Part shown: piece by piece, positions 34,617-56,356 of the stretch
How positions within the stretch are numbered: the first letter of the stretch is position 1
Layout: each line of letters opens with the position of its first letter
IMG/VR virus record: IMGVR_UViG_3300047496_000430
Coordinates: 1-64,000 of that record
Length of the DNA: 64,000 nt
Strand: one strand, 5' to 3'
From: a virus
Position numbers and translations under genes: made by a program
Notes under the pieces: generated by a model
Database searches by the model: none
Told to the model about the DNA's origin: nothing
The model's input: only the letters and a program-made list of their open reading frames with translations

Positions 34617-35333
34617 ATGGAGCGAAAGAGCATGGGAAGTCGAGAAGCGCCTGAATTCGTGGGTGTACTTGAAGCAGCACGCCTGCTGAAGTGCACAAAG
34701 CGCGCGATTCACGTCTATGTTCGCAACGGCACACTACGCCCTCTTCGGGTCGAAGGCGGCATCCGTTTTCGCGCCACAGACCTGCTTGGACTCCAAGAGG
34801 CGCGGTCACGCACAGACCTCACGCTATTGGAGGTGGCATCCATCGCCCTCCAAGCCAGGGCTATTGCGCGTTTCAACGAACAGCGTCTCGAGGAACTACA
34901 CCTAGCGCTGGGCATCCCCTCCACAACCCTGGACCGCACGCCAGCAGGAGTGGTTGGGCTCCACGCCGAGGCAGTGCGTCCACTTCTGGCAGAAGACCTG
35001 CGACGGCACGACTTCATCTACTTCTGGGCCTCCTCTTTTGTCGCAATGGATGAAGACTACCTTGCGCTGGTGGCTCGGCACGTTGGGAGTCGTGAACCCT
35101 GGCGCATCTTCCTAGACCTTGCCTCTCAGCTACTGGCGCAGAGCCCCGACATGGCAACGACGGCCATCGAGCTGCGGCAGGCTTTCGCGGCGCTCGAGGC
35201 CGCACGCCGCAGTCTCCGACACGTGGCCTACTTCTACTGCACGCGTGCCGAATCACAGGAGACGGCCAACCAGTTGTTTCCAGAGAAGCCCTCTCCGGTG
35301 GACACCCTGCTGGCCATCCTCTCCTCGCGCTAA
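34617..35333 (+). CDS. MerR/excisionase-like DNA-binding protein (238 aa)
   Basis: Residues 12-60 (EFVGVLEAARLLKCTKRAIH, VYVRNGTLRPLRVEGGIRFR) have the layout of a winged helix-turn-helix of the MerR/HTH-17 kind: helix, turn, DNA-facing helix, then a wing and an FRATDLL segment. The rest is a helical domain of 170 residues without recognised ligand motifs. It is a lone plus-strand gene between terminase and head genes, with its stop sharing CTAA with terL. Likely a regulator of late genes; the target is unknown. Confidence 0.7.
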   Translation: MERKSMGSREAPEFVGVLEAARLLKCTKRAIHVYVRNGTLRPLRVEGGIRFRATDLLGLQEARSRTDLTLLEVASIALQARAIARFNEQRLEELHLALGIPSTTLDRTPAGVVGLHAEAVRPLLAEDLRRHDFIYFWASSFVAMDEDYLALVARHVGSREPWRIFLDLASQLLAQSPDMATTAIELRQAFAALEAARRSLRHVAYFYCTRAESQETANQLFPEKPSPVDTLLAILSSR

Positions 35334-42646: not shown

Positions 42647-43222
42647 TCAGTGAATCTTCCGATAGGCCGCGACCCGGCAACACCAGTCGATGAAGACGTC
42701 TTGCGCCATCGCATGCTTCATGAAGTTCACTGCGGGGTGCACCCACTGGACATTGCCCGGGATGTAACCCTTCTCGCTGTCAATGCGGTCAAGAGAAGCT
42801 ACTGTTTCTCCCTCTGCGAGCGTCTTCTTCGTCATGCCGAGTGGTGCTCCGGTTAGAGCGCATCGGCGTCCTTGTTGTTCAAAAATAGACCACAGTGTCG
42901 CGGCCGTTACTGAGAATACAAATCCTCGGTGACGCGCCTGCGTACGAAGACACCCGTAACGATGCCCACTCAGGTGGCCCGCCGACGCGTACTTCGACCG
43001 GTACGTCCGTGTCTGCATTCGCGCGCAACCGCAAGACTGCGGTCCCTGTTCTACGCGTCTTGGCCTACGCCCTATAGTTGATGCGCGCTTGACTAGCTCC
43101 TTGCCGCACACGCAACGCACACGCCACATAACGTCACCGCGCGCGGCAACTTCACCCGTGGGGGCTAGCACCGTCAACAAGCCGATGACTTTTCCGGCCA
43201 AGTCCTTTCGGATGTTCGGCAT
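42647..43222 (-). CDS. HNH homing endonuclease (191 aa)
   Basis: N-terminal region (DLAGKVIGLLTVLAPTGE, RVRCVCGKELVKRAS, CGCAR) is a Cys-rich DNA-binding part seen in phage HNH enzymes. The catalytic part has CALTGAPLG, SLDRIDSEKGYIPGNVQWV and HPAVNFMKH, the D-R-I-D...GY...N-V-Q-W...N-x2-K layout of HNH homing enzymes. Start ATG 43222 overlaps the RNA polymerase stop as TGATG, so translation is likely coupled. It is a free-standing mobile gene; no intron is seen in the polymerase gene. Confidence 0.85.
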   Translation of the reverse strand: MPNIRKDLAGKVIGLLTVLAPTGEVAARGDVMWRVRCVCGKELVKRASTIGRRPRRVEQGPQSCGCARMQTRTYRSKYASAGHLSGHRYGCLRTQARHRGFVFSVTAATLWSIFEQQGRRCALTGAPLGMTKKTLAEGETVASLDRIDSEKGYIPGNVQWVHPAVNFMKHAMAQDVFIDWCCRVAAYRKIH

Positions 43223-46200
43223 CAATAGAAGTGCTCCGGCACATCCTTGAGGTGCCCGTAACCGGGTTTGCTGGCGTCCCTCTTCGTCAGACCTAGCTCG
43301 CTGCCGAAAGCCATGCCCGGGACAGGGTGCGTCCCGTGGATGTGCGACACGCCGCGCGTTGCCGCCGCCTCCATCAACGTCTCGCGAAGATGCCGGTGCT
43401 GCAACTTCGCCATCCAGTCTTCTTGCATCTCGAGAGGTAGAACTTCAATGCCTTTCAGCGTCGGCTTGTGTTCGATGGGCTTTTTGCTGGCTGCTATGAG
43501 CTCGGCGTTGAGCTTGTAGACCGTCGTCGTCGGGCGATACTCCCCACGAAGAACAGTCGGGTGGTCTCCAGAGTCCGTGACCTCGGTGAGATTCCCCATC
43601 ACGCGCACGATGGTCTCGATGGCGCGGCGCTTGATGCCCTCCTTCGCGTAGAGACCGTGAATCTCGTCGACGAGGTGTCCCTGCACACGCTCCATCGAAT
43701 TCGTCGCCTTGAAGAGCTGGCGCGGGTTCACGACGGTGCGGTTCGGGTCGGAGAGATGCTGACCTGCCTCGACCTGCATGCCGACGACGGGCGGCTGCCA
43801 GGGCATGTAGCCGCTGATGCCCCGCGAGTTGGGCAGCGCCGCGTGCAACGGCATCCCGCGCGCGTCGTTGCTGACGTGGTGACGCTTGCCGCCGACAAAG
43901 ATGTCCACACCTGTCGCGGTCGGTTGAATCTTCTCGACCTTGCCGCTGACCATCGACAGCGTCGCCTCGTTCGGTACGTGCTCCGGCAGCATCAGCAAGT
44001 TCGAGAAGTGCTTGAAGGCGTTGACGACCTTCGAGCCGCTCGCCTCACGCACGCCACCCGTGTGGAAGGCCTTCAAGGTCAGCTGCACTGCGCGCTCACC
44101 AACCGTGTGCGCCGAGAGAACGCCGATGTTGGTCCCGAGCGGATGCAGGTCTCCCGAAGAAGAAACTCCACTGCACTTCTGGCAGATGCCCTGCTCCTCC
44201 TCACACTTCAGCGGCGAACGAACGACGAGCCTGGCGTCCTTCTTGACCGACCGAATCTTACCCACGATGTCCGGTGTGAGCAGCGTGCCCGCCGGTACGT
44301 GCAGACCATCCTGGTCGAAGTCCTTCTGCAGGTAGCGGTCGTGAATGTCCCGCTCCTGCACCGACAGAGCAACGCCCTTATTGGTGCCACAATCGTGCTT
44401 AGTGATGAGCACGTTCATCATGTTCTGCATCAACAGCTTCGACATAACGCCGGGTTTCTCGACACCCTGGACCTTGAGGACTGCGCCCCGCCGCGCACCG
44501 TGCATCTGCGTCCAATAGCTGCCGAGGTCCAGACCCTCAGAGTAGCTCTTGGTGACCGGTGTCGGGATGTCCTGGTCAGCGGAGTCCTGGTAAATCATCG
44601 GGGCCAAGACCATCTGCTTGTACTGCTCCCAGCCCGGCTTCACGCCCGCGCTGTACATCGTGAAGAGATTCGAAGGGTCCTTCTTCATCTTCTCTTCGTG
44701 CAGCGTCTTCATCGTGTTGCCGGCTGTCTTGTAGACGTTGATGGCCTGGCGGTCCTTGTCAGCCTGCGGAATCTTTGTGCTCGCGTAGATGCTCGCGGCT
44801 TCGGCGTGCGCCGCCTTCAAGACCTTGTCGCGCGTCTCATAGTCTGGGGTGAAATCCTTGAGCGACAGCGTGTGCACCCCCGTGGGGACGAAGATGTTCT
44901 TGCTCGGGTCGTGCACGGCAACGTGCGTGTTTTCGAACTTCTGGAACGCGAAGGCATGGCCAGCGGCTGTGGGCAGCGGCAGGCGTACCGAGCCAGAGGC
45001 CGCGCCGTTGCCGATGTCCTTTAGCTTGTTCACGACGTCGCCGTAGAGCTCGTGATGGTTCTTCGCGAGCGTCGTCAGCATCGCGTCAAGCCCCTTGCCG
45101 TCGACCTTCGTGTTGAAGTCATGGAGATAGGTGTCCTGCATCTCCTTCGGCAGCGCAGCCGCGAGCATCACGCGCCCCGGCGTGGTTTTCTTCCCATCCA
45201 GCTCGACGACATCAGTCGACAGCAGATGACCCTTCTGGACGGCCTCGACAACCTGCGCCGGGTTCTTGAAGGTCTTCCCCGTCTCCTTGCCGACGAGCCC
45301 GAGCTTGTAGAGGCCGAGTGCCGACTCGAGCGTCGGCTGGTACATCACGCGCCCCGTCGCCTCGCTGAAGAGGTTGTTCGATGGGAACATCTTGTGGGCC
45401 TCCGCAACGGCCTCACGCGTGATGGGGACATAGGCGCTCATCGAGTCACCGTCGAAGTCGGCGGTGAATCCCCCAGTCACGAGCGGGTGAATCTGCACCG
45501 CGCTACCTTCGACACGACGCGCACGGAAGCCTTGCACCGAGTACTTGTGAAGCGCAGGGTCGCGCTTGAGTAGCACGGGGCGCTCCTCCATCACCCGGTC
45601 GAGCGCACGCCAGACCGAGGGCGTCGGCTTGGCAAGCAGCGCTGGTGCCTGCAGCTCCGTCTGGATGGCGCCCATCTCGCGCAGCTTCCGAATGACAAAG
45701 GGTCGATAGAGGCTGAGCGCTGCGTGACTCGGGAGTCCGACTTCATCGAGACCGAGCGCGGGCTCCGGCACGATGGTCGAGCGCATCGTCAAGTCCTGTC
45801 GCCGGTTGATGAGCACGCGCTGGAAGTAGCCACGCTTCGGCTGGCTTCCGCTGATTTGGTGCAGGATGCCCTTGAGTTTCTGCCCCTCGTACGGGATGCC
45901 GACGCCCATCAGCGCCTTCACGCCGTCGTAGAGACTCTCGCGAAGCTCTTGCTTGTGCGCGTCGTCAAGGTTCTGCGCGATGACCGGGTCCTTCAGCTTA
46001 TCGTTCACCTTCGCGAAGTCCGAGTAGAGCTTCGTGAGTCCCTCGAACTGAAGGTTGCCGTCGGGCAGCCGCGAGACCGCACGCAGCACGGGCGGCATCA
46101 CCGGCAGATTGTGCAGCACGTATGCGTCCGCCGGCTTGAGGTTCGCAGTGTCGAGCGCACGCAAGTACTTCACACGCTTCAAGACACTGTCGACCTTGTG

Positions 46201-49200
46201 CTCACCACGCACCGTTCGCAGTTCTTCTTCGGCCTTCCGCAGGTCCTTCTTCACGTCGATGCGCTCAAGAAGCAGCTTGATGCCAGCACCGCCGGTGATG
46301 CCTGCATGCGTGTCCGTGAGATGCCCGTTGGGCGTGATGCCGCGTGTTCCTGCGATGACGGCGTCGTAGTCCTTCTGCGAGAGCCCGGTGAGGTGTCGAA
46401 TCGGGGCTTCGAAGACAGGGTTGGGGAGCGGCTCGGCCAGCGAGATGCGCGTCCACTGTCGACCCCCGTGACCGCCCGTGAGCTTCTCGTCGAAGAGGCC
46501 ACCCGTGATGGGCTTCGGGTCGCCGTTCCCGTCGACCTTGTTGCGATGCACCAGCTCTGCAGGCTTCGGCAGCTCCTTCGGCGCGAGCGTTCGAATCTGG
46601 TCATCCGTCAACGGCGTGAGGATGAAGTCATGTCCCTTCTTCTCGAGGTTCACACCTGCACCACGCAGGAGGTCTTCGAATTTCTGGAACGCGAAGGTCG
46701 GCTTCGGCGTAGGCAGCGCGCCACCAGTCGCAATGGCTGCCCAAATGCGTCGATGGTCACTGGGCCACTGCTTCGAGGGGCTCGTGTTCGGGTCCGGCCC
46801 TTCAGACTTGTACGACTGCATCTCACGGATGTTCGCCTTCGCGCCGTGCGCGAGGAGCGCGTAGAGCCCGAGGGTTCCCATCGCCTGACCGCCGGTGTGC
46901 CCACCGCTCGCCGGTTGCAGGTTCGAGTCGTAGGTCTCGTGCTCTCCTGACCCAGGAAGCGGGTCCATGCCGCTGCGCACTGAGAGCTTCTTGTCGACCT
47001 GGTGCACGAGCTTGAGCATGTGCATCGGACCCACAAGCGCGTGTCCGAGACTTTGCTTGGTGACCGGGTCGATGAGCTCCTCGGTGTCGGAGAGCCCGTG
47101 CGTCTTCAAGTCACTCTTCACCCGCGCGAGGAAGTCGACGCCCGGCTCAAAGTTCTCGACGAGGTAGGTCTTGCCCGTCTTCTTGGCGACCTTGCCGGCG
47201 GCCGTCTCGAGCACCTGGCTCACGTTCATGCGCCCAGGAACGCCGCTGGGGTTCAGGGCCACTTCGATGTGCTCGCCGTTGGGCGTGTGCGGCATCTCTG
47301 CGTCAGGGAGGATGCGCGTGACGATGCCCTTGTTGCCGGCGCGTCCGGTGAGCTTGTCGCCGACCTGCATCGGCTCCGTGGTCTTCACGTGCACTGAAAC
47401 ACCGTCCGGCCCACGGTGCACACTCACTACCTCGCCCGAGGCGTCCGCGTCCCAGCGCAAACTCTTGTCGGTGTGCGCACCGCTCATGCTGCGCCGAATC
47501 GCGCTGAGGCCAGTACGGTCCTTCAGACGGAACGGCTTCATGGCCGCAACAAGCGGGTCGCCGGGACTGACTCGGCTACCGACGCGCACGATGCCGTCGT
47601 CGTCGAGCTTTGCGAGCTGGTCCTTCTTGAAGACGTTGTGATGCTCGCGCATGAACGCGGCTTTGTTGAGCTTCGTCTCCCCGTCGACCGCGAGCGTGTG
47701 CTTGTGGAGGTGCTCGCTCGAGAGCTTATCCGCCGCAGACTGGCTGATGACGATGCCGTCCTCGAAGTTGTAGCCACGAAAGGGGATGAACGCGACGCGG
47801 AGGTTCGTACCGAGAGCGAGTGTGCCGTTCTTCGAGAAGTTCGTGTCCGCGACCGACTTGCCCTCCTTCACTTCGTCCCCGACCTTCACCGTCGGCGTCG
47901 AGTGCAGCATCCCCTTGGCATCGTTCAACGGGTAGTGCTGGTAGAGCTGGACCTCGTGCTTCTGTCCGCTCTTGTCCGTGATGACGATGGCGTCCTTCTT
48001 CACCGACGTCACGTGCCCATCGACCGGCGCGACGTGCGACGCGAAGTCCCCGACGACCTGCTCGAAGGTGACCGGCCCCGGGACACCCGTAGAGACCTGC
48101 ACCAGCGGCGGCTCACGATGCACCAACGAGATGGCCTGCTCCATCTGCCGGCTGGCCATCGAGGCACGACCGCCGCTGGTGTTCCCCATGAAGGGGATGA
48201 GGTTGGCCGTGATGTTGAAGAGCTGCGCCGGCAATCGCATCACGTAGTGCGCATCTTCGAACTTGCCGTTCTCGATGGCGTTGTTCTTCACGCTCATCTT
48301 CACGGTGTCGGAGATGGGCTTGGGCCGCCCGTTCTCCCAGCGCACCTGGTCGGGGAGCACGACGTTCGCATCTAGGAACGTGGCTGCGTTCACGTGCTCC
48401 ATCTCGTGAGTGCGCGTGTTGTAGAGCTGGATGCGCGCCTCGTTGCCGACCTTCTTCAGACCGACGGGCAGGCGGAGCGTGACGCCTGTCTTCGCACCCT
48501 CGGGGGTGTTGATGGGGTCGAGGAAGCCGAGATGGCTCGGGTTCACGAACTTCGCCTCGTCGACGATGCCGCGCTCGCTACGGATGCCGCCCGGTCCCAT
48601 GATGGTCGTCTGCATTGCAGAGCCGAGCATCTCGAGAGGGTTGATTTGCGACGGCGTGGACGAGGCTTCGTTCTCCTTGAAGGTGTCGCGGACCGGGCGG
48701 TCGAAGAGGTCCATCTTGATGATGTCGCGCACCTCCTTCGCCGTGTTGATTTTCCTCTCAATGCGCTTGCGAATCCCAGGACCTGCACCGCGCAACTTGT
48801 CGTAGGCGAAGTCTCCGGCCGAGCGCAGGTCCTTGAAGACGAGGCTGTCACGGTCATCTTCTGGATGGCCGGCCTGGACCTTGAGCATCTTCTCCGTCGC
48901 GAGCCGAATGGCTTCCGACGTCACATGCGTGAGCGGCTTTCCGAGTGTAACGCTGGTGGAGTCAGGTCGGAGCTTTGAGCGCTCCATTGCCTGGTAGAAG
49001 TGAGCCGCTGCCTCCTCGTGCGACGACGGCGCCGTTCCTTTGCTAGTACGGTAGAACGCCTCGAGCGCGGCGCCGACATTGCGCGCGTTCTTGTTGGCAG
49101 TGAGGATTTCTTTCCCCCACGCCTTCTCGAGCTCTTCGTCCGTCGCGCCGAGCGTCTTCAGCAACGGGTACAACGGCGGGTGCGCCTTGTTGTAGTCCAT

Positions 49201-49668
49201 CGTGAAAATCTTCGTGTCCGGGTCGAAGGCGAGGTCGAACCGGCGCCCGTCCTTCACGTTGAACTGACTCTCGAGCTCACCGTTCTGCCTGCGGCGCGCG
49301 TACACGCCAGGCTTGAGCTGCCACTGGTTCGAGACCTGGTACTCCCGCCCATCGACCAAGTAGCTGTGGCGACGCGTGGTCTTCGGAATCTCCGCTACCC
49401 GGATGCGCTGACGGTCGATGAGTTGCCCGGCCTTGTCCTTCAGCGCGAATGTTGCGAAGACAGGTACGGCCCAACTCTCGCCGTTCACCTTCGCGGCGTG
49501 CTGCCCACGAATGTCATCTGGGTGCAGGTCATCCTGCACCTCGAGGTTCTCGAGGTGGAGCGATTGCAGCTTCCCTTGAATGCTCCCATTCGGGAAGTGA
49601 CTGCGAATGCCCTCGAGCACGTGGCTCTTGAGGTCGTCGAATGCGTCCGTCGGGGCGAGGTAGGCCAA
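43222..49668 (-). CDS. Single-chain fused beta-beta' RNA polymerase (about 2,148 aa)
   Basis: Beta part: HLGFLDPINTPEGAKTGV, GYNFEDGIVIS, GNKGIVTRILPDAEMPH (near 47330) and GGQAMGTLGLYALLAHGA, each matching bacterial RpoB motifs. Beta' part starts near 46600 (DDQIRTLAPKEL): ALHKYSVQGFRARRVEGSAV, then T-A-D-F-D-G-D at 45465-45445 with the three magnesium Asp, and the second zinc site with HDCGT (about 44390) and CEEEQGICQKC (about 44190). The N-terminal beta' zinc site is missing. TTG 49668 has GGAG six bases upstream; ATG 49722 and a frame opening at 49803 are alternatives lacking a ribosome site. It would transcribe phage genes. Confidence 0.9.
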   Translation of the reverse strand: MAYLAPTDAFDDLKSHVLEGIRSHFPNGSIQGKLQSLHLENLEVQDDLHPDDIRGQHAAKVNGESWAVPVFATFALKDKAGQLIDRQRIRVAEIPKTTRRHSYLVDGREYQVSNQWQLKPGVYARRRQNGELESQFNVKDGRRFDLAFDPDTKIFTMDYNKAHPPLYPLLKTLGATDEELEKAWGKEILTANKNARNVGAALEAFYRTSKGTAPSSHEEAAAHFYQAMERSKLRPDSTSVTLGKPLTHVTSEAIRLATEKMLKVQAGHPEDDRDSLVFKDLRSAGDFAYDKLRGAGPGIRKRIERKINTAKEVRDIIKMDLFDRPVRDTFKENEASSTPSQINPLEMLGSAMQTTIMGPGGIRSERGIVDEAKFVNPSHLGFLDPINTPEGAKTGVTLRLPVGLKKVGNEARIQLYNTRTHEMEHVNAATFLDANVVLPDQVRWENGRPKPISDTVKMSVKNNAIENGKFEDAHYVMRLPAQLFNITANLIPFMGNTSGGRASMASRQMEQAISLVHREPPLVQVSTGVPGPVTFEQVVGDFASHVAPVDGHVTSVKKDAIVITDKSGQKHEVQLYQHYPLNDAKGMLHSTPTVKVGDEVKEGKSVADTNFSKNGTLALGTNLRVAFIPFRGYNFEDGIVISQSAADKLSSEHLHKHTLAVDGETKLNKAAFMREHHNVFKKDQLAKLDDDGIVRVGSRVSPGDPLVAAMKPFRLKDRTGLSAIRRSMSGAHTDKSLRWDADASGEVVSVHRGPDGVSVHVKTTEPMQVGDKLTGRAGNKGIVTRILPDAEMPHTPNGEHIEVALNPSGVPGRMNVSQVLETAAGKVAKKTGKTYLVENFEPGVDFLARVKSDLKTHGLSDTEELIDPVTKQSLGHALVGPMHMLKLVHQVDKKLSVRSGMDPLPGSGEHETYDSNLQPASGGHTGGQAMGTLGLYALLAHGAKANIREMQSYKSEGPDPNTSPSKQWPSDHRRIWAAIATGGALPTPKPTFAFQKFEDLLRGAGVNLEKKGHDFILTPLTDDQIRTLAPKELPKPAELVHRNKVDGNGDPKPITGGLFDEKLTGGHGGRQWTRISLAEPLPNPVFEAPIRHLTGLSQKDYDAVIAGTRGITPNGHLTDTHAGITGGAGIKLLLERIDVKKDLRKAEEELRTVRGEHKVDSVLKRVKYLRALDTANLKPADAYVLHNLPVMPPVLRAVSRLPDGNLQFEGLTKLYSDFAKVNDKLKDPVIAQNLDDAHKQELRESLYDGVKALMGVGIPYEGQKLKGILHQISGSQPKRGYFQRVLINRRQDLTMRSTIVPEPALGLDEVGLPSHAALSLYRPFVIRKLREMGAIQTELQAPALLAKPTPSVWRALDRVMEERPVLLKRDPALHKYSVQGFRARRVEGSAVQIHPLVTGGFTADFDGDSMSAYVPITREAVAEAHKMFPSNNLFSEATGRVMYQPTLESALGLYKLGLVGKETGKTFKNPAQVVEAVQKGHLLSTDVVELDGKKTTPGRVMLAAALPKEMQDTYLHDFNTKVDGKGLDAMLTTLAKNHHELYGDVVNKLKDIGNGAASGSVRLPLPTAAGHAFAFQKFENTHVAVHDPSKNIFVPTGVHTLSLKDFTPDYETRDKVLKAAHAEAASIYASTKIPQADKDRQAINVYKTAGNTMKTLHEEKMKKDPSNLFTMYSAGVKPGWEQYKQMVLAPMIYQDSADQDIPTPVTKSYSEGLDLGSYWTQMHGARRGAVLKVQGVEKPGVMSKLLMQNMMNVLITKHDCGTNKGVALSVQERDIHDRYLQKDFDQDGLHVPAGTLLTPDIVGKIRSVKKDARLVVRSPLKCEEEQGICQKCSGVSSSGDLHPLGTNIGVLSAHTVGERAVQLTLKAFHTGGVREASGSKVVNAFKHFSNLLMLPEHVPNEATLSMVSGKVEKIQPTATGVDIFVGGKRHHVSNDARGMPLHAALPNSRGISGYMPWQPPVVGMQVEAGQHLSDPNRTVVNPRQLFKATNSMERVQGHLVDEIHGLYAKEGIKRRAIETIVRVMGNLTEVTDSGDHPTVLRGEYRPTTTVYKLNAELIAASKKPIEHKPTLKGIEVLPLEMQEDWMAKLQHRHLRETLMEAAATRGVSHIHGTHPVPGMAFGSELGLTKRDASKPGYGHLKDVPEHFY

Positions 49669-49786
49669 TGGTTTCTCCGCGGAACTTCTGGGCCGCAGGG
49701 TAGCTCGCACGCGAGAACACATGCAAGGCAGAACCAAGCGGTGGAATAAGAGCACTGGAGGATGACACGGCACGGAAGGAGCGAAA

Positions 49787-49915
49787 ATGGGGCCCGAAAG
49801 CAAGGACGCTGGCGCGCTGTTTCAGCGACGCATCGAGCAGATGTTCGAACTCGAGGAGCAACAAGATGACGAAGATGAACCAGAAGAAGACCTCGATGAA
49901 GGGAATACAACGTGA
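49787..49915 (+). CDS. Acidic microprotein (42 aa)
   Basis: AAGGAG lies five bases before ATG 49787. The product starts MGPESKDAGALFQRRIEQMF and ends in a strongly acidic stretch (QQDDEDEPEEDLDEG). It opens the plus-strand operon divergent to the RNA polymerase gene; the 118-base gap between them (49669-49786) must hold both promoters, but I see no convincing -35/-10 pair, only a CTCGCAC-GCGAG palindrome at 49704-49715. An acidic peptide beside a polymerase gene could bind the enzyme; speculative. Confidence 0.6.
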   Translation: MGPESKDAGALFQRRIEQMFELEEQQDDEDEPEEDLDEGNTT

Positions 49916-50064
49916 AGGTGCTGTTTCTTCTGTTCTTTGGCGCCGGTCTGTTCAACGGTGCGATGCTCTGGATTCGCGAACATCTACGCAGGGAAAGTGA
50001 GCGCTATGCTCGTCAATCCGTACAGGGACCGGCTAGCGACCCTGCCCGGCACGCGCATCCTTGA
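49912..50064 (+). CDS. Single-pass membrane microprotein (50 aa, GTG start)
   Basis: GTG 49912 overlaps the previous stop as GTGA. The first 20 residues (KVLFLLFFGAGLFNGAMLW) are a transmembrane helix, followed by a basic polar tail (REHLRRESERYARQ). It overlaps the next gene by 59 bases. Membrane role unknown. Confidence 0.5.
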   Translation: MKVLFLLFFGAGLFNGAMLWIREHLRRESERYARQSVQGPASDPARHAHP

Positions 50065-50599
50065 GTCAACTTTCGACATCATCGGCGCGAAGTTGCTCGA
50101 CCCCCACAACCAGAGCCGCCTCTGGGAAGTGCAGTGCTTGTATGCCCCCCTTCCCGGCCGCGCGCTAGGTGGTTTTCGCGCGCGGCTCACAGACCAACTC
50201 GGATTCATCACCTTCTGCAACCAACGCGACCTCGAGGTGCTCATCGACAACGCCTGCCCTGGTGACTACTGCGGCTGGAACGACACTTACTACGTCGGGC
50301 CGACACACCGCGACTGGTATGGCCTCTGCTGTGACGAGGATGACCTACGCGACGACCTGTTCGAGTACGAGCTCCTGCTGCGCGCACAGTTCGCCGGCGG
50401 CGCGTTGATACCAGCCTTCCAGGGGCAGCTCGACTACGTGCGTCTGCTGCATCTCGGCAACAACAACGACGTCGAGGAGGAGCGTCTCTTCATAATGGAC
50501 TACGACCCAGACACGGGCGCTTTCCCCGACACGACCTTCGAGAACGTCGAGCGTCGATGGATGCGCAACGGCACTTCGAAAGTTCGATGGCATACATAG
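50006..50599 (+). CDS. Hypothetical protein (197 aa)
   Basis: Start chosen at ATG 50006 (MLVNPYRDRLATLPGTRILE). Globular, aromatic and Cys/Trp-rich in the middle (CPGDYCGWNDTYYVGPTHRD, WYGLCCDEDDLRDDLFEYEL), with a very acidic second half. No family recognised. Lies in the MoxR operon. Confidence 0.7.
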   Translation: MLVNPYRDRLATLPGTRILESTFDIIGAKLLDPHNQSRLWEVQCLYAPLPGRALGGFRARLTDQLGFITFCNQRDLEVLIDNACPGDYCGWNDTYYVGPTHRDWYGLCCDEDDLRDDLFEYELLLRAQFAGGALIPAFQGQLDYVRLLHLGNNNDVEEERLFIMDYDPDTGAFPDTTFENVERRWMRNGTSKVRWHT

Positions 50600-51207
50600 C
50601 CGCGTCCGCTGGCCTACTAGAGAAGACGGGCTGGACATGCACAAGCTGCGACGAGCACATCGAGTACGTCGAAGAAGTCTTCCAGTTGCAGGTTGTGGAG
50701 ATGCGCCTCATCGAAGGACACCTCCGCTACTTGCCCATCATGGCGACGAACGGGGACTACCTGTTCGACCCGCAATTCATCTGCTTTCGCTGCTGGGAAG
50801 ACGCCTACGAAGACCTGAAGGAGCACGTCGATGACATGCCGTCCCTGGACGACATGGGAAGCATGTTCGCCTGCTCAACTTGCGGTAGCGGCATTCGCGA
50901 AGGGGAGTACACCATCATCGCGACGCTCGGAGAGATGCATCGCTCTCGCCGCGCACCACAAGGACACCACGACCCGACGTTCGTGCCTTCAGGAGCGCCG
51001 ACAGTCCTCTGCCTCTACTGCGCGAAGTGTGTCGATGAGCAGTCCATCGATATGTGGATAGGACTGGGACACAACAACGACTGCCTCGAGTGCGCGCACG
51101 TTCGCTGCTGGCGCAACGACGTGACGTGCGAGTGCCACTGCCACACAGACGACCCCTACGAAGAAGAAGACGTCGAAGACGACACTGAGGAGGACACCGA
51201 TGGCTGA
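50557..51207 (+). CDS. Multi-zinc-knuckle hypothetical protein (216 aa)
   Basis: At least four Cys pairs: CTSC (about 28-31), CFRC (about 76), CSTC (about 106), CLYC/CAKC and a CLEC...CWRN...CECHCH group near the C-terminus, ending in an acidic run (YEEEDVEDDTEEDTDG). This suggests two or three treble-clef/zinc-ribbon units. ATG 50587 (MAYIAASAG) is an alternative start. It overlaps the MoxR gene by eight bases and so is probably made together with it. Confidence 0.7.
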   Translation: MDAQRHFESSMAYIAASAGLLEKTGWTCTSCDEHIEYVEEVFQLQVVEMRLIEGHLRYLPIMATNGDYLFDPQFICFRCWEDAYEDLKEHVDDMPSLDDMGSMFACSTCGSGIREGEYTIIATLGEMHRSRRAPQGHHDPTFVPSGAPTVLCLYCAKCVDEQSIDMWIGLGHNNDCLECAHVRCWRNDVTCECHCHTDDPYEEEDVEDDTEEDTDG

Positions 51208-52429
51208 GAAGACCGAGAAGAAAGTGGGCGATGACCAAATCGTGGTGCACAACCTGGAGGACATCCTCCAGATGGCGCTGCTGGTCCCGAAGGATGACCC
51301 GCGAGACCCAGAGTGCCGCTGGGGGGCACCCATCTGCCTCTGGGGCTCGCCAGGCATTGGCAAGTCGGGCCGTGTCGAGGTTGCCGGCACGCGACTCCAG
51401 TTGCCTGTGGAGACGGTCTACCTCGCTACGAGGCAGCCCGAGGACATCTCCGGCGCACCGTTCCAGGACGTCAAGAACGGCGGCATCACTATCGAGACGA
51501 TTCTCGGGGCCGTCCGCACACTCGTCGCCGCGAAGAAGGGCGTGCTGTTCCTCGACGAGCTGTCGTGCGCACGACCCGCCATCCAGGGCGCCGCGCTCGG
51601 TGTCGTCTACGAACGCAAGGTCGGCGACACCGTGCTGCCGCCGCGCGTGCGCGTAGTTGCCGCGGCCAACCCCCCGGAAGAAGCCGCCGGCGGCTGGATG
51701 CTTTCTCCCCCGATGGCCAACCGCTTCATGCACTTCACGGTGCCTGTGCCTTCTCGCGCGGAGTGGAGCGAGTGGCTCATGGGGAACGACGCGAGAGAAG
51801 ACGTCAACCTCGCAGCGAACGAAGCGATGGTTGCCCAGAACTGGGACGTGGTCTGGGCACGCGTGAAGGGCGCCGGCGCGGGCTTCATGCTGAAGAGCCC
51901 GGACGACACGCTCTACGCGCTGCCGCGCGAAGGCAGCAAGGACCGCACGCGCGCATGGCGCTCCCCGCGGTCGTGGGAGCTCGGACTGCGCGCAGTCGCC
52001 ACGTGCCGAGCCCTGGGACGTCCGGAGCTCGAGCTCGAGCTGCTCACTGGCTGCGTGGGTCACGCAGGCGCTGAGATGTGGGCGACGTACAACAAGAACC
52101 TCGACCTCCCGGACCCGAAGGAGATGCTCGAGAAAGGCTGGACGCCGGACAAGATGCGCCTCGACGTCTGCCACGCCGCGTACTCCTCGGCCATCAGCTA
52201 CGCGCTCGACCCAAAGGACAAGAAGGAGCAGCGCGCGCGTGCAATTCTCGCGTGGAAGCTTCTGCAGGGCGGCCTCAACGCGAACATCCCCGACATCATC
52301 GCGCACCCGGCGAAGACGCTCATGAAAGCGGGCTACCGCGCGTCCGTCGATGCGGAGCTCAAGGCTGTGGCGGGTGAAATCACCCTTCGCTTCGGCCACA
52401 ACAAAATCGCGAACATGGTCTCGCGATGA
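51200..52429 (+). CDS. MoxR-family AAA+ ATPase (409 aa)
   Basis: Walker A GSPGIGKS (49-56), Walker B LFLDE (116-120), and a sensor-1 Asn in VVAAANPPEE (N157), with an AAA+ lid after residue 240. The order and the short lead-in match MoxR-type ATPases, which act as chaperones that remodel or load cofactors into partner proteins, usually with a VWA-domain protein. The next gene encodes exactly such a partner, overlapping by four bases (ATGA). GAGG lies six bases before the ATG. Confidence 0.9.
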   Translation: MAEKTEKKVGDDQIVVHNLEDILQMALLVPKDDPRDPECRWGAPICLWGSPGIGKSGRVEVAGTRLQLPVETVYLATRQPEDISGAPFQDVKNGGITIETILGAVRTLVAAKKGVLFLDELSCARPAIQGAALGVVYERKVGDTVLPPRVRVVAAANPPEEAAGGWMLSPPMANRFMHFTVPVPSRAEWSEWLMGNDAREDVNLAANEAMVAQNWDVVWARVKGAGAGFMLKSPDDTLYALPREGSKDRTRAWRSPRSWELGLRAVATCRALGRPELELELLTGCVGHAGAEMWATYNKNLDLPDPKEMLEKGWTPDKMRLDVCHAAYSSAISYALDPKDKKEQRARAILAWKLLQGGLNANIPDIIAHPAKTLMKAGYRASVDAELKAVAGEITLRFGHNKIANMVSR

Positions 52430-53928
52430 GCAACCACGAAGAGCGCATCGCAGTCGCGCGCGCCTTCGCCATCTTGACAGCGCCCTACTACATCGCCGCG
52501 ATTCACGGGTTCGTGTTCGTGGCGGTGCCCGGGTGTCGCACGATGTTCCTCACGCGGAATCTCATCTGCGGGTACGACCCTGAGTGGGCCGTGCGCGCAA
52601 CGGACGAGGAACTGGCCGCGGACATCATCCACGAGGTGAACCACTTCCTGCGTCGGCACTTCGAGCGGTCCGACACCGTGGCGTACCCAGACCTCTTCGC
52701 TCTCGCCGGCGACCTACCCATCAACTCGGACATGCGAACTGCGGGATGGACGCTCGAAGAAGGCTCCATCTACCCCGAGAGCTTCGACCTGCCCGCCGGG
52801 CTGAGCACAGAGGAGTACTACGAACTCCTGCTCAAGAAGAAGAATGAAGAGGAAGAAGAGGAGAAGAAAAAAGAGAAGGACGAACAGGAGGGCGGCGACG
52901 AAGAGGGCGAAGGAAAAGGCGGTGCTCCCGGCGGACAGAACAACAAGACCGACGGCGACCAGAAAGGCGCCAGCGGGAAGAAGCCGCAACCGGACCCGAA
53001 TGCCAAGAACGCTGGAGCGGGCAGCGGCAAGCCAGGCAAGGGGCAAAGCACACCCAGCAAAGGCGGTGGCGCGGGTGGCAAGGGCACACCGGTAGATAAG
53101 AAGTGCGCCGCAGGCAACTGCGGGTCCATCGCCGGTCCCTCCCACCCGCTCGAGCAAGCGACGTTGGAGCAGCTCGCTGCAAGTGTTGGCCGCAACGAGG
53201 TCGAACAGAGGGTCATCGAGAAGCAGGTCTCGCAAGCCATCAAGACACACGCAGCGACGAACGGTCGGGGGTCCGTGCCCGCCGACCTTCTCTCCAAAGC
53301 CGAGATGGACGACGAGCCCTCGACCATTCCCTGGCAACAGGAGCTGGCATCGGTGCTGCGCAACACCTCTGGACGCATCCAGTCCGGTGGTGACGACTAC
53401 TCCATCTCGCGGCCATCAAAGCGTTCTGGACTGCGCCGCGGTCTCATCAGACCTGGCCTGGTCGAGCACCTTCCCGAGGTCGGCATCGTCATCGACACCT
53501 CGGGCTCGATGGGTCCGCAGCAGCTCACTGCGGCCGCGCGCGAGGCCTACGCCGTTTGCCAGGCGCTCGGCATCGACGAGGTCTGGTTCTGCGAAGCAGA
53601 CGCCGCCATCTCACAAGACTGGAAGCGCGTCGGTCCTTCCTTCTTCCGCGACCTCGAGATTCGTGGCGGAGGCGGTACTGACTTCGCGCCCGCCATCGCC
53701 AGCGTGGACCGGTTGAACCCCCGACCGGACCTCCTCGTGTACTGCACCGACGGCGACGGCCACGCTCCTAAGCAGCCGCCACCAAATCTCGAAGTCGTAT
53801 GGGCAGTAGTTCCTTCGTACTTCAACCGCGCTCCCGCTCAATGGGGTCACACGGTCATCATCTCCGATGACCTGGGTCGTCGTCGACGCGAGCTCATCCT
53901 CCCAGACGATACAAAGGACACGCCATGA
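52426..53928 (+). CDS. VWA-domain protein with N-terminal HExxH metallopeptidase-like region (500 aa)
   Basis: Residues 1-125 hold H69-E-V-N-H73 in ADIIHEVNHFLRRH, the motif of the DUF2201-type putative metallopeptidase region. Residues 137-225 are a charged Glu/Lys then Gly/Lys/Pro linker. Residues 350-495 are a VWA-like domain with the MIDAS D357-T-S-G-S361 (IVIDTSGSMG) and GGGGTDF as the third MIDAS part. Such proteins pair with MoxR ATPases, as here. Target unknown. Confidence 0.9.
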   Translation: MSNHEERIAVARAFAILTAPYYIAAIHGFVFVAVPGCRTMFLTRNLICGYDPEWAVRATDEELAADIIHEVNHFLRRHFERSDTVAYPDLFALAGDLPINSDMRTAGWTLEEGSIYPESFDLPAGLSTEEYYELLLKKKNEEEEEEKKKEKDEQEGGDEEGEGKGGAPGGQNNKTDGDQKGASGKKPQPDPNAKNAGAGSGKPGKGQSTPSKGGGAGGKGTPVDKKCAAGNCGSIAGPSHPLEQATLEQLAASVGRNEVEQRVIEKQVSQAIKTHAATNGRGSVPADLLSKAEMDDEPSTIPWQQELASVLRNTSGRIQSGGDDYSISRPSKRSGLRRGLIRPGLVEHLPEVGIVIDTSGSMGPQQLTAAAREAYAVCQALGIDEVWFCEADAAISQDWKRVGPSFFRDLEIRGGGGTDFAPAIASVDRLNPRPDLLVYCTDGDGHAPKQPPPNLEVVWAVVPSYFNRAPAQWGHTVIISDDLGRRRRELILPDDTKDTP

Positions 53929-54230
53929 TGGTCGAGAAGAAGAACGACGACATCCCAACGGCCGCGATTCTGCGCCAGCAGGTCCAGAGCTACTACGCGA
54001 CCATCGCGGAGAAGAACGCGAGCGAAGGCCGAAGCCAGGCTGCGGCCGTCGGGAAAGAGGCACTGGACGCCGCGCGCAGCGGGCGCACGTTCATCATGTG
54101 GTCGAAGCCGCTCAACGCGCAGGCACTGGAACTCCTCCAAGCGGCGAAACTCAAGGTCGAAGACCTCGGCGAGCGTGTCGCCACCAGCTGGCGCATCAGC
54201 TGGGACGAGTCTCCGGTCAAGGCGAAGTAG
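53925..54230 (+). CDS. Small helical protein at end of MoxR operon (101 aa)
   Basis: Start ATG 53925 overlaps the upstream stop (ATGATG; ATG 53928 is the other choice), with AAAGGA six bases upstream. Helical N-terminus (AAILRQQVQSYYATIAEKNA), then beta-like stretches (FIMWSKPLNAQALELLQAAK, ATSWRISWDES). Last gene before a strong hairpin terminator. Could be a partner of the MoxR-VWA pair; no family recognised. Confidence 0.7.
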   Translation: MMVEKKNDDIPTAAILRQQVQSYYATIAEKNASEGRSQAAAVGKEALDAARSGRTFIMWSKPLNAQALELLQAAKLKVEDLGERVATSWRISWDESPVKAK

Positions 54231-54233
54231 CAG

Positions 54234-54267
54234 GAACAGCGGGGTGCCTTCGGGCGCTCCGCTGTTC
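54234..54267. terminator. Strong hairpin between convergent units
   Basis: A 15-bp stem (54234-54248 with 54253-54267, two G-T pairs) closed by a TTCG tetraloop lies in the 47-base gap between the convergent stops at 54230 (+) and 54278 (-). The trailing tract on the plus strand is TTCTTCTA, so it mainly ends the MoxR operon and probably also stops minus-strand read-through. Confidence 0.75.
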
Positions 54268-54277
54268 TTCTAGCTAC

Positions 54278-56356
54278 TCAGACTGCTGCTCCCGCGCGGC
54301 GCGGCGCGCGCTGCTCTGGAAGCGGTCGTGTGTCCACACCGGGGTTCCCCTGTCCAGGCTCCCGCATCGACGCCAGCATCTGCTTGACGAGGTCGGCGAG
54401 CTCGGGGCTCTGCAGCCGCAAGTTGCCGAGCGCGACCTCTTGCTGCTTCGGTGGCATCGCCGAAATCTGCTGCGCCTGCATCATTGCGAACGACGGCAAG
54501 TCGACGTTGAGGCGCGCGCCCTCGTTCTGGTTCTCCGGCTGCATCCGCTGCGCACCAGTGAGCTGGCTTGCGACGCCGGCGAGGAAGGTGGCCGGCGGCA
54601 CACCCATCGCCGTCGAAGGCGGCAGCGCCGGCTGTCCCTGCACCACCTGGCCATCGGGACCGACGACCTGGAGCTCAGGAGGCAGCTGCACGCCGCCCTG
54701 CACCAGCTCCGACCCCGGACCGCCGCCAGCGCCCTGCTGCTCCGGACCACCAGGCTCCCCTGGCGCGAGTGGCGCGGCGGCCGCCTGCTGCAGGACCTGC
54801 TGTCCCTTCGCCTGCATCTTCATCATCACGACCTGCGCCTCGCCTTGAATCTGCGCCATGGCGAGCTGCTGCTTCTTCATCGCAGCGAGCTTCAGGTCCG
54901 ACTCCTCCATCATCGTGTTCGTCTCGTCGGTCTGCGAAAGGTCACTGTCGGCGAGGAGAGCCGTGTCGGAGATTTTACCAGCGGCGTTGAGCTGAAAGAA
55001 GAAGGCCTTGCGCTGCAGGTCGTCAGCCATCTTGAACGGCTTGAAACGCACACTCGCCTCGGGCCAGCCCATGTACGCAGCGACGTTCTTCATCACGAAG
55101 CGCGCAAGCGCCTTGTGGCGCAACGTGTAGCCGATGAACGCGTTCTCGAGCATGCGCATCGAGACGTTCGTACCGGCGTAGCTCATGCCGCCGAGCAAGA
55201 ACTCACGCGGCACGCCCATGCCGACCATGATGTGCTCGGACCACTGTTGAATCTCGCCGGTGAGAAGCAGGGCTCGCCCGTCTCCACCGACGGTCTGTTG
55301 CCCGACGGGCAGCGGGAGGATGGGGATGTAGTTGTTGTCGTAGCGCCAGCGCGCAATCTCGGCAGCAATCTGGTCTCGCCAGTCGACGAGGTTCGTCGTG
55401 GTGTACGGGTCACTCGTCCCGCTGCCTGCCTGCGGGAAGAGGATGCGCAACGGCACGATGTGCTCGAGGAGGATGGCTTCCTGCGCCTTCTTCATCGTCT
55501 GCAGGTAGAAGGCGTCCTTCAGCACGGGCAGCAGCAGCGGCGTGCCCCAGCCACGGTCCTGCGTCGCAAGCGTTGGCCGGCGCAGATGGAAGAAGTTGTC
55601 TTTCGAGAAGATGACGCCCTTCGACTCGCGCATCGCCTGGATGAACACCTGCGGCGTCGACTCGACGACGTCCTTCCGACCCAGCACCACGTCGTTCCTG
55701 ATGAGCGCCGGGATGTTGTAGAAGTAGGTGTACTCACCTGTGATGTCGTTGTACGTGATTTCTATGTCTTCGGGATTCCACCGGATGAGCCGAATGCCGC
55801 TCGCGTTCTTGAAGTAGTAGTCCTTCGGGATAGCGTCGCCGAGGAACCCACACTCCGGACACGTCATACGGAACTGGTAGTTGGTGCAAATCCAGAAGGC
55901 TCGAATCTTCGAGGCCTCATCGCGGAAGTTGCAGCGGGTGCACTGCAAGTATTTCTTGAAGGGATAGCTCAGCGAGATGCAGGCGTTGCCGTACGCGTGG
56001 TAGTCGAGCCCCGATTCGACTTGGAACGCGCGGTAGCGGAGGTGGTCCTGGAAGTACTCCGTGTACTGCTTCTTCACCGCCTCATTCTGGTGGTCGACGA
56101 TGATGTCTGTGACCGGGTACTCGCTCAGCTTGAACACCGTCGCGTTGATGAGCGGGTTCGTCATGAAGTAGTAGCGGCACCACTTGAACAGTCCCTTGAC
56201 GGTGACCGGCAAGTACGTGTGCGCGACGTCGAAGAAGGGACTCGGATAGTTGACCCCCTGGACGTTGCCACCACCCTGTGTGCGCCCGCGCGTCTGCGCG
56301 AAGCGCATGCCGCTGGCGGGCCCCGATGCGACTCCGAATCCGCCCATGAACGACAT
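54278..56356 (-). CDS. Portal protein with zinc-binding insertion (692 aa)
   Basis: The core (residues 40-480) has portal-like segments: VTVKGLFKWCRYYFMTNPLI, RLIRWNPEDIEITYNDITGE, DAFYLQTMKKAQEAILLEHI and GVPREFLLGGMSYAGTNVSM. C139-x2-C142 and C166-x2-C169 form a zinc-ribbon insertion not usual in classical portals. After residue 490 comes a helical Gln/Ala/Pro-rich tail. Twelve copies should form the packaging ring at one capsid vertex. Its start overlaps the stop of the upstream gene (TGATG). Confidence 0.88.
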   Translation of the reverse strand: MSFMGGFGVASGPASGMRFAQTRGRTQGGGNVQGVNYPSPFFDVAHTYLPVTVKGLFKWCRYYFMTNPLINATVFKLSEYPVTDIIVDHQNEAVKKQYTEYFQDHLRYRAFQVESGLDYHAYGNACISLSYPFKKYLQCTRCNFRDEASKIRAFWICTNYQFRMTCPECGFLGDAIPKDYYFKNASGIRLIRWNPEDIEITYNDITGEYTYFYNIPALIRNDVVLGRKDVVESTPQVFIQAMRESKGVIFSKDNFFHLRRPTLATQDRGWGTPLLLPVLKDAFYLQTMKKAQEAILLEHIVPLRILFPQAGSGTSDPYTTTNLVDWRDQIAAEIARWRYDNNYIPILPLPVGQQTVGGDGRALLLTGEIQQWSEHIMVGMGVPREFLLGGMSYAGTNVSMRMLENAFIGYTLRHKALARFVMKNVAAYMGWPEASVRFKPFKMADDLQRKAFFFQLNAAGKISDTALLADSDLSQTDETNTMMEESDLKLAAMKKQQLAMAQIQGEAQVVMMKMQAKGQQVLQQAAAAPLAPGEPGGPEQQGAGGGPGSELVQGGVQLPPELQVVGPDGQVVQGQPALPPSTAMGVPPATFLAGVASQLTGAQRMQPENQNEGARLNVDLPSFAMMQAQQISAMPPKQQEVALGNLRLQSPELADLVKQMLASMREPGQGNPGVDTRPLPEQRAPRRAGAAV

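What the first reader, a model, noticed from the sequence alone, without database searches (positions are those of the whole stretch)
49787..54230. Phage MoxR-VWA operon divergent from the RNA polymerase
A seven-gene, fully overlapping plus-strand operon holds an acidic microprotein, a membrane microprotein, an unknown, a multi-zinc-knuckle protein, a MoxR AAA+ ATPase, a VWA protein with HExxH, and a small helical protein, closed by a 15-bp terminator. MoxR-VWA pairs remodel or mature protein complexes in bacteria. Next to a large polymerase and inside a virion-gene region, it could assemble the polymerase or virion, or act on a host complex. The zinc-knuckle and C-terminal small proteins may be specific partners not described before.
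Basis: partly seen in the sequence, partly recalled or inferred. Interest (0 to 1): 0.72.

Follow-up and report, generated by a model that had tools for sequence, protein, structure and literature searches.

The report
Conserved phage MoxR-VWA protein-remodelling cassette
A group of bacterial viruses known from environmental sequences keeps, beside its RNA polymerase, the same six genes, which look like an ATP-driven machine for pulling apart and cutting a protein complex; four of the six parts have no known function and the target is not known.

Summary
The window is part of a 177-kb tailed-phage record. At 49787-54230 (+) seven overlapping genes encode an acidic microprotein, a membrane microprotein, a 197-aa unknown, a zinc protein, a MoxR/Midasin-type AAA+ ATPase, a metallopeptidase-VWA protein and a small helical protein. 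They diverge from a fused beta-beta' RNA polymerase and end in a strong hairpin before the portal gene. The first six form a cassette kept in the same place in about 60 related viral contigs (49 non-redundant); the seventh is not conserved. Catalytic and MIDAS residues are invariant. A promoter-like motif (GCAA-N16-GGn-ATAAGA) is shared by the cassette and the replication block and was not found at the window's virion genes, pointing to early or middle expression. Best reading: a membrane-tethered AAA+/VWA/metallopeptidase remodelling machine acting in early-to-middle infection; target unknown. The MoxR plus peptidase-VWA pair in phages is already published; I saw no account of the four partners, the fixed arrangement or the motif in the passages and listings seen.

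The parts
49723..49751 (+). promoter-like two-box motif GCAA-N16-GGn-ATAAGA upstream of the first gene (23 bases from box start to box start)
   Evidence: 10 strict hits in the 177-kb record against a mean of 0.23 (maximum 2) in 30 Markov-1 resamplings; 9 of 10 have the same spacing (pattern written after seeing sites). Upstream of the cassette in relatives, same strand: 23 of 61 strict, 45 of 61 with the single box against 8 of 61 in one shuffle of each.
49787..49915 (+). acidic microprotein, 42 aa: short helix-like motif (N/D-x-G-x-x-F-E-x-x-I-D-x-L-F) and acidic tail
   Evidence: Profile hits just upstream of the 197-aa gene in 40 of 61 relatives; pN/pS 0.13, 0.32, 0.37 in three pairs.
49912..50064 (+). 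membrane microprotein, 50 aa, one hydrophobic segment with G-x-F/L-N-G-x-x-x-W-x-R-E motif, GTG start
   Evidence: Profile hits in 57 of 61 relatives; pN/pS 0.13-0.30 in four pairs, 1.6 in one. Membrane location is inferred from sequence.
50006..50599 (+). 197-aa protein; AlphaFold2 model pLDDT 94.9; no significant fold match
   Evidence: 61 viral contigs, none confirmed in genome contigs; model; fold searches.
50557..51207 (+). zinc protein, 216 aa, two CxxC...C(xxC) modules (C28, C31, C79; C106, C109, C152, C155), acidic C-terminus
   Evidence: 61 of 61 relatives; C28, C106, C109, C152, C155 invariant in 47 sequences; model pLDDT 88.4; weak PHROGs matches only, best phrog_10952, function unknown, 3.7e-4. 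Zinc binding is inferred from the cysteines.
51200..52429 (+). MoxR/Midasin-type AAA+ ATPase, 409 aa; invariant K55, D119, E120, N157, R175, R257 (Walker, sensor and finger roles recalled)
   Evidence: PF07728 above cut-off, PF07726 below; phrog_1297 4.2e-39; invariant columns in 41 sequences; 58 of 59 relatives whose contig reaches.
52426..53928 (+). metallopeptidase-VWA protein, 500 aa; HExxH at 52630-52644, third-ligand candidate D96 (inferred), low-complexity linker about 52843-53100, MIDAS DxSxS at 53494-53508, T418, D442 (roles recalled)
   Evidence: PF13203 and PF09967, phrog_1314; H69, E70, H73, D96, D357, S359, S361, T418, D442 invariant in 37 sequences; 55 of 56 relatives whose contig reaches.
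53925..54230 (+). small helical protein, 101 aa, not conserved; on the transcript by overlap only
   Evidence: No phmmer hit at E 0.001 in 117 loci; no family above cut-off.
54232..54269 (+). terminator-like hairpin between the cassette and the convergent portal gene
   Evidence: -34.3 kcal/mol, z -6.6, 0 of 200 shuffles as stable; not listed by the T-tract scan.
43222..49668 (-). fused beta-beta' RNA polymerase, the divergent neighbour, not part of the cassette
   Evidence: Pfam Rpb2_6, Rpb1_2, Rpb1_5; NCBIfam beta/beta' models, below their cut-offs; on the opposite strand beside the cassette in all 61 contigs.
54278..56356 (-). portal protein, the other conserved neighbour, convergent
   Evidence: phrog_16240 0.0035; homologue of the annotated Arash portal, 8e-73; downstream in 55 of 55 relatives whose contig reaches.

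Best explanation
The six genes make a membrane-tethered protein-remodelling machine used in early-to-middle infection. Shown: the conserved cassette, invariant ATPase, HExxH and MIDAS residues, conserved microprotein and cysteine-rich partner genes, and a promoter-like motif shared with the replication block. Inferred: the ATPase forms a ring and pulls on a target; the VWA protein docks on the ring and its MIDAS grips an acidic residue of the target or an adaptor, as in Midasin; its N-terminal zincin domain then cuts the released protein. The zinc protein and the 197-aa protein choose and hold the target. The membrane microprotein anchors them at the inner membrane. The acidic microprotein is the most likely MIDAS ligand, as adaptor or regulator. 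The target is more likely a host complex, probably membrane-bound, or an early phage complex than the phage polymerase or capsid.
For: Invariant catalytic and MIDAS residues. Best solved match of the ATPase profile is Midasin, E 9e-18; RavA comes much lower, 1.9e-4. Cassette order conserved while the 197-aa protein falls to about 30% identity. Membrane microprotein in 57 of 61 and acidic microprotein in 40 of 61. The promoter-like motif lies at the cassette and the replication block, on the same strand, in the window and in relatives: 24 hits upstream of the cassette; 15 elsewhere, all on the cassette strand, 10 of them (7 non-redundant) 9.5-10.1 kb downstream, where the window has its replication-block copy; 2 inside RNAP; none within 400 bases upstream of portal. 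Recognised DNA-replication genes are on +, recognised virion genes on -. In phage N4 the homologous gp24 and gp25 are core and middle genes (PMC4193335, passages). The AR9 homologue has an annotated early promoter. RNAP and MoxR-VWA each occur without the other.
Against: No target, interaction or activity is shown. MoxR and VWA distances track RNAP (0.85, 0.82) better than portal (0.69, 0.70) in 28 loci, which would also fit an RNAP client. The cassette always sits between RNAP and portal, which fits a virion or RNAP role too. L074 keeps RNAP, the membrane peptide, the 197-aa and the zinc protein without MoxR-VWA or a visible acidic ORF in its contig, so the partners may work without the ATPase. 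The strand split is not perfect: a dCMP deaminase and a dNMP kinase match lie on the virion strand. Neither partner model matched a solved structure significantly. Membrane topology is inferred from sequence only.
Confidence: 0.5

Rival explanations
1. Virion assembly: the MoxR-VWA-peptidase pair is a chaperone and protease for head, portal or tail proteins, as proposed in PMC7824862 for group 2.2 jumbo phages, with the membrane peptide helping portal or prohead initiation at the membrane.
For: Published proposal for the same domain pair (PMC7824862, passages); ATV p618/p892 precedent as told in PMC3893208 (passages); cassette always next to portal; RPP1 has a structural module, suggested to be expressed mid-phase, beside its gp24/gp25 homologues (PMC4193335); the S-TIM5 copy lies beside Hsp20 and near a gene annotated as virion structural protein, the Moorella phage copy near an HslV-family peptidase.
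Against: Opposite strand to virion genes and shared promoter-like motif with the replication block; homologous portals in D69 and Arash without MoxR or VWA.
Confidence: 0.25
2. Polymerase maturation: the cassette assembles, loads or processes the fused beta-beta' RNA polymerase beside it.
For: Divergent neighbour in all 61 contigs; MoxR and VWA distances track RNAP better than portal.
Against: Homologous RNAP without the cassette in D69, Arash, L014, L027; MoxR-VWA without recognisable RNAP in 8 of 11 other phages; no insert longer than 23 aa separates six RNAPs with the cassette from two without. The two RNAP models could miss divergent polymerases.
Confidence: 0.12
3. Two units on one transcript: membrane peptide, 197-aa and zinc protein form their own function, for example a membrane or nucleic-acid factor, and MoxR-VWA merely shares the promoter.
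For: L074 keeps the first set and lacks MoxR-VWA in its 35-kb contig; the pair occurs without relatives of the 197-aa and zinc proteins in 11 other phages.
Against: One exception among 59 contigs that reach MoxR; L074 is a fragment, so the pair could lie elsewhere.
Confidence: 0.2

Closest known systems
MoxR plus metallopeptidase-vWA pair of group 2.2 jumbo phages (PMC7824862, 2021)
   Same: AAA+ MoxR-type ATPase beside a vWA protein with an N-terminal metallopeptidase domain
   Different: Here two microproteins, a 197-aa and a zinc protein precede it in fixed order, between RNAP and portal; no such partners are mentioned in the passages read
Phage N4 gp24/gp25 (AAA ATPase and vWFA protein, Schitoviridae core genes)
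   Same: Same pair: JWDelta copies are annotated similar to gp24 and gp25 and its VWA gene carries PF13203; core and middle-expressed in N4 (PMC4193335)
   Different: JWDelta has no relatives of the 197-aa and zinc proteins by profile; its RNAP is of another type
Midasin (Mdn1/Rea1)
   Same: Best solved match of the ATPase profile (E 9e-18); works with a MIDAS domain
   Different: Midasin is one giant chain in eukaryotes, without a peptidase (recalled); here ATPase and VWA are separate and a zincin is present
RavA-ViaA of E. coli
   Same: MoxR-type ATPase with a separate VWA partner; ViaA partly at the inner membrane (PMC3893208, passages)
   Different: Weaker sequence relation (1.9e-4); no zincin or microprotein partners (recalled)
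MoxR-vWA ternary conflict systems (PMC7159879, 2020)
   Same: MoxR-vWA core with dedicated partner families
   Different: No VMAP, iSTAND, FtsH or beta-propeller partner was seen by the scans made; bpMoxR matches only below cut-off in the window and in 3 of 41 members at E 0.001
Multimeric-RNAP-encoding Caudovirales, mReC (Weinheimer and Aylward 2020, PMC7481178)
   Same: Metagenomic tailed phages with beta and beta' RNAP; likely the same lineage
   Different: That paper's main text does not hold the words MoxR or Willebrand (term search); lineage identity was not tested by a tree here

Membership tests
DUF2201 metallopeptidase-VWA (PF13203 + PF09967; phrog_1314) | both domains above the curated cut-off in this order | tested here: met
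   87.2 against 23.2 bits and 59.2 against 26.4 bits
DUF2201 metallopeptidase-VWA (PF13203 + PF09967; phrog_1314) | HExxH and complete MIDAS residues | tested here: met
   H69, E70, H73, D357, S359, S361, T418, D442 invariant in 37 sequences; role names recalled
DUF2201 metallopeptidase-VWA (PF13203 + PF09967; phrog_1314) | peptidase activity | not testable with these tools
   needs an assay
MoxR family (PF07726 AAA_3) | above the curated cut-off of the MoxR model | tested here: not met
   22.5 against 27 bits in the window protein; 15 of 41 members match at E 0.001
AAA_5, dynein-related (PF07728), wider MoxR/Midasin group | above the curated cut-off | tested here: met
   28.1 against 22 bits; 34 of 41 members match at E 0.001
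MoxR-VWA chaperone pair (general) | ATPase and VWA genes linked on one strand | tested here: met
   Overlapping genes in the window; in all relatives whose contig reaches except L074; in 10 of 10 other phages looked at, by annotation or hit, within a few genes, adjacent in 5
MoxR-VWA chaperone pair (general) | physical interaction and ATPase stimulation | not testable with these tools
   needs purified proteins
Midasin | AAA ring and MIDAS domain in one chain | tested here: not met
   separate genes 51200-52429 and 52426-53928
MoxR-vWA ternary conflict systems | third component VMAP, iSTAND, FtsH or beta-propeller | tested here: inconclusive
   no such Pfam match in the seven cassette-region proteins and no PADLOC match in five of them; whether those libraries hold all these components was not checked
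mReC phages | RNAP falls in the mReC clade of the RNAP tree | not tested
   fused beta-beta' RNAP found in the window and relatives; no tree with the published sequences

The most novel reading that the evidence does not exclude
The cassette is a new, dedicated multi-partner MoxR-VWA system of phages: an inner-membrane-tethered unfoldase-peptidase, switched on with the replication genes, in which a zinc adaptor and a lineage-specific protein capture a host complex and the acidic microprotein feeds or gates the MIDAS site. It would be a phage counterpart of the bacterial MoxR-vWA conflict systems, used for host takeover or counter-defence and not for building virions.
Probability: 0.27. Interest if true: 0.8.

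Novelty: new variant of a known kind. Interest (0 to 1): 0.58.

Why it matters
The MoxR plus peptidase-VWA pair is a core gene pair of the N4-like phages (PMC4193335, passages) and recurs in many other phages, yet in the passages I read its target is unknown or only proposed. This lineage shows the pair with four constant partners and a regulatory signal, which turns a vague chaperone idea into specific testable claims: membrane tether, zinc adaptor, MIDAS ligand, early or middle timing. It also offers a candidate promoter motif for these RNAP-encoding phages, a lead for what their unusual polymerase or a host factor recognises.

Tried and rejected
RNAP as an obligatory client: dropped as the leading idea because RNAP and MoxR-VWA each occur without the other. 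PF00940 rang in none of its 14 control genomes, so its only positive is JWDelta itself. Searches had no positive control in the same call; supplied it (3 of 5 records matched; L014 and L027 did not). Idea that the zincin cuts the beta-beta' junction: not favoured, since the cassette-free phages also carry a beta-beta' fusion.

Single-protein searches of viral contigs with VWA and MoxR found no relatives; the RNAP and then alignments worked. Fold searches of the zinc protein gave only weak PARP or LIM zinc-finger-like rows, best VIA Z 3.3, rmsd 5.1, 69 aligned. The 197-aa protein gave only weak small-beta-barrel rows, best Z 3.0, rmsd 2.8, 58 aligned, and no viral match at E 0.001; the zinc protein was not run against the viral library. 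A weak match neither shows nor excludes a fold. Sequence profiles of both found nothing convincing among solved structures. PADLOC: no match for five cassette-region proteins, the two microproteins not included. A sigma70 region 2 model found nothing in the record. The sigma70 consensus scan found no promoter.

Distance-matrix correlations (28 of the 61 loci, those with long enough frames for all six proteins) were kept only as a sign of shared inheritance; neighbours tend to correlate. The acidic family is undercounted by the profile: acidic ORFs can be seen in L043, L047, L055, L075 and L082, which the count leaves out.

The 61 contigs were found with the 197-aa protein, so its presence in them is by construction. 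Less dependent searches: by RNAP, 19 of 21 loci have it, six of the 19 being near-identical; by VWA, 34 of 35. All queries favour this lineage. The zinc protein was sought outside it only in the family libraries and in the 13 records.
Full report
What is there. The window is the first 64 kb of a 177,425-bp virus record, apparently of a contractile-tailed phage: large terminase (35330-37141), a major head protein match (26988-28115), a tail sheath match (16500-19532) and a portal (54278-56356), all on the minus strand. The VWA protein carries PF13203 and PF09967 above their cut-offs. The ATPase is AAA_5 above cut-off and AAA_3, the MoxR model, below it. PHROGs places the pair in phrog_1297 and phrog_1314; the latter is labelled 'HNH endonuclease', which its domains contradict. 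The zinc protein has only weak PHROGs matches (best phrog_10952, function unknown, 3.7e-4), the membrane microprotein weaker ones still, and the acidic and 197-aa proteins none.

Conservation. A search with the polymerase gave 21 related viral contigs. Nineteen carry the 197-aa and the zinc gene divergent from it (six are near-identical); L014 and L027 have polymerase and portal but none of the cassette. A search with an alignment of the 197-aa protein gave 61 contigs, 49 non-redundant at 97% DNA identity of that gene. Counts among the 61: zinc gene 61 of 61; MoxR 58 of 59 whose contig reaches that far; VWA 55 of 56; portal 55 of 55; membrane microprotein 57 of 61; acidic microprotein 40 of 61. 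The polymerase is on the opposite strand directly upstream in 58 of 61 by a strict distance rule; the other three (L047, L088, L089) miss it only because stop-to-stop frames overlap. A VWA-led search gave 35 loci, 34 with RNAP, 197-aa, zinc, MoxR and VWA genes together and one (L126) with only MoxR-VWA. The 197-aa protein was not found in the genome-contig collection (one pattern, 105 matches, none confirmed). The seventh gene of the window had no phmmer hit at E 0.001 in the 117 loci held then.

The two microproteins look like real genes by three signs. Profiles seeded from ten and nine sequences recover further members at the same place among 14,734 ORFs. At E below 0.01 no acidic hit lay elsewhere; ten membrane hits fell outside my first distance limit, and of the five printed four are within a few bases of it and one (L048) is 358 bases upstream. 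pN/pS is 0.13, 0.32 and 0.37 for the acidic family and 0.13-0.30 in four pairs for the membrane family, with a fifth pair at 1.6; one very close pair gave no ratio.

Active sites. H69, E70, H73 (HExxH), D96, D357, S359, S361, T418 and D442 (MIDAS set) are invariant in 37 VWA sequences. K55, D119, E120, N157, R175 and R257 are invariant in 41 ATPases. The role names are recalled from general knowledge of these folds. The zinc protein keeps C28, C106, C109, C152 and C155 in all 47 sequences, C31 and C79 in at least 90%. In its model (pLDDT 88.4) C79, C152 and C155 lie at the start of helices that follow strands, a treble-clef-like order; that label is my inference. The 197-aa model is confident (pLDDT 94.9) but matched no solved or viral structure significantly.

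Which target? RNAP and MoxR-VWA dissociate. The whole records of Vibrio phage D69 and Salmonella phage Arash have homologous RNAP (a beta-beta' fusion, split further along in beta') and portal but no VWA, MoxR, 197-aa or zinc protein by profile (positive controls in 39, 40, 103, 104). Conversely, of 11 other phages with the PF13203 protein, PF00623 rings in 2 and PF00940 in 1; 8 have neither, though divergent polymerases could be missed. Against this reading, MoxR and VWA distances correlate with RNAP (0.85, 0.82) more than with portal (0.69, 0.70) in 28 loci. L074 is one contig with RNAP, membrane peptide, 197-aa, zinc gene and portal but no MoxR or VWA in its 35 kb.

When? My home-made gene calls put the recognised replication genes (helicase 60987-62729, DnaB-like helicase, primase, DNA polymerase, UvsX-like recombinase, exonuclease) on the plus strand, like the cassette, and the recognised virion genes on the minus strand. 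Two nucleotide-metabolism matches (dCMP deaminase, dNMP kinase) are on the minus strand. The stretch upstream of the cassette holds a motif GCAA-N16-GGn-ATAAGA, 23 bases from box start to box start. The strict pattern, which lets the spacing vary by a few bases, occurs 10 times in the record, 9 of them intergenic and 9 with exactly this spacing, against a mean of 0.23 (maximum 2) in 30 Markov-1 resamplings. Since I wrote the pattern after seeing sites, that expectation is too kind. The copies stand before the cassette, before the gene that precedes the helicase, before the DnaB-like gene, near the right end, and before minus-strand genes beyond 77 kb; none stands in 1-49722, where the window's recognised virion genes other than the portal and the RNAP lie. 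In 1.15 Mb of the 61 loci (some overlapping in content) there are 41 hits: 24 upstream of the cassette; 15 elsewhere, all on the cassette's strand, 10 of them (7 non-redundant) 9.5-10.1 kb downstream, where the window has its replication-block copy (10.25 kb); 2 inside RNAP; none within 400 bases upstream of portal. Twenty-three of 61 loci have the strict form upstream of the cassette and none has it on the RNAP strand of that stretch; 45 of 61 have the single ATAA(G/C)A box against 8 of 61 in one shuffle of each. This points to joint early or middle expression. Homologues agree: N4 gp24 and gp25 are among 14 core genes of 25 N4-like phages and are middle transcripts (PMC4193335, passages); the AR9 gene is annotated with an early promoter, in a phage whose virion proteins are mostly late (PMC5312081, passages).

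How it may work. The best solved match of the ATPase profile is Midasin (E 9e-18); an uncharacterised protein (2r44), ClpA, PspF and others follow, and RavA comes at 1.9e-4. Midasin and its MIDAS domain dislodge assembly factors from pre-ribosomes (starts of abstracts in the listing). I infer a ring ATPase, a VWA protein that grips an acidic ligand, and a zincin that can cut. The zinc and 197-aa proteins would select the client, the membrane peptide would tether the complex, and the acidic peptide would be the MIDAS ligand or regulator. None of these contacts is shown.

Prior art. A 2021 survey of jumbo phages (PMC7824862, passages) described a MoxR-vWA pair with an N-terminal metallopeptidase in group 2.2 phages and proposed virion assembly with processing. 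The 2007 genome paper of phage 0305phi8-36 (PMC2147016, passages) noted two MoxR-type subunits. Weinheimer and Aylward 2020 (PMC7481178, outline and passages) described RNAP-encoding Caudovirales, very likely this lineage; its main text does not hold the words MoxR or Willebrand. The listings showed no title or abstract start that speaks of these partners or this motif; I read passages of only some of those papers, and most subscription-journal papers and bioRxiv preprints are not in that library.

Verdict. A real, strongly conserved cassette around a known pair; new variant of a known kind, with unknown target.

Noticed in passing
window 43222-49668 (-); L029 22068-29119; L030 21908-33076: The RNAP is one fused beta-beta' chain. 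In Vibrio phage D69 and Salmonella phage Arash it is split inside beta' (near window residue 1,494) into a 1,525-1,527-aa and a 606-609-aa piece, with other annotated genes between.
   Followed up: partly
L015 9992-17908, L019 9974-18631, L071 1764-9797, L088 851-9853: Stop-to-stop RNAP frames of some relatives are several hundred residues longer than the window's; inteins or other inserts are possible.
   Followed up: no
phrog_1314; AR9 BI022_gp029 and other phage records: The label 'HNH endonuclease' on this family is spread through phage annotation although the proteins carry metallopeptidase and VWA domains.
   Followed up: yes
window 56356-57930 (-): A large protein beyond the portal, kept in many relatives, carries a HSHP stretch that recalls JAB/MPN metallopeptidases (recalled); PHROGs and NCBIfam gave no match.
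   Followed up: partly
window 7084-8403 (-): One ORF combines a dCMP deaminase match with a match to a 'head protein' family.
   Followed up: no
record positions 78777, 120440, 133568, 140488, 148545, 158938 (-), 174907, 175910, 176942 (+): Further copies of the promoter-like motif (strict two-box form, or at 140488 and 148545 the ATAAGA box with a diverged first box), mostly before small genes, a possible early regulon.
   Followed up: partly
L136 6.6-8.3 kb: Planktothrix phage Pag-Yong1 carries ORFs annotated as anti-CRISPR AcrVA2 and Cas9/Csn1 family close to its VWA gene.
   Followed up: no
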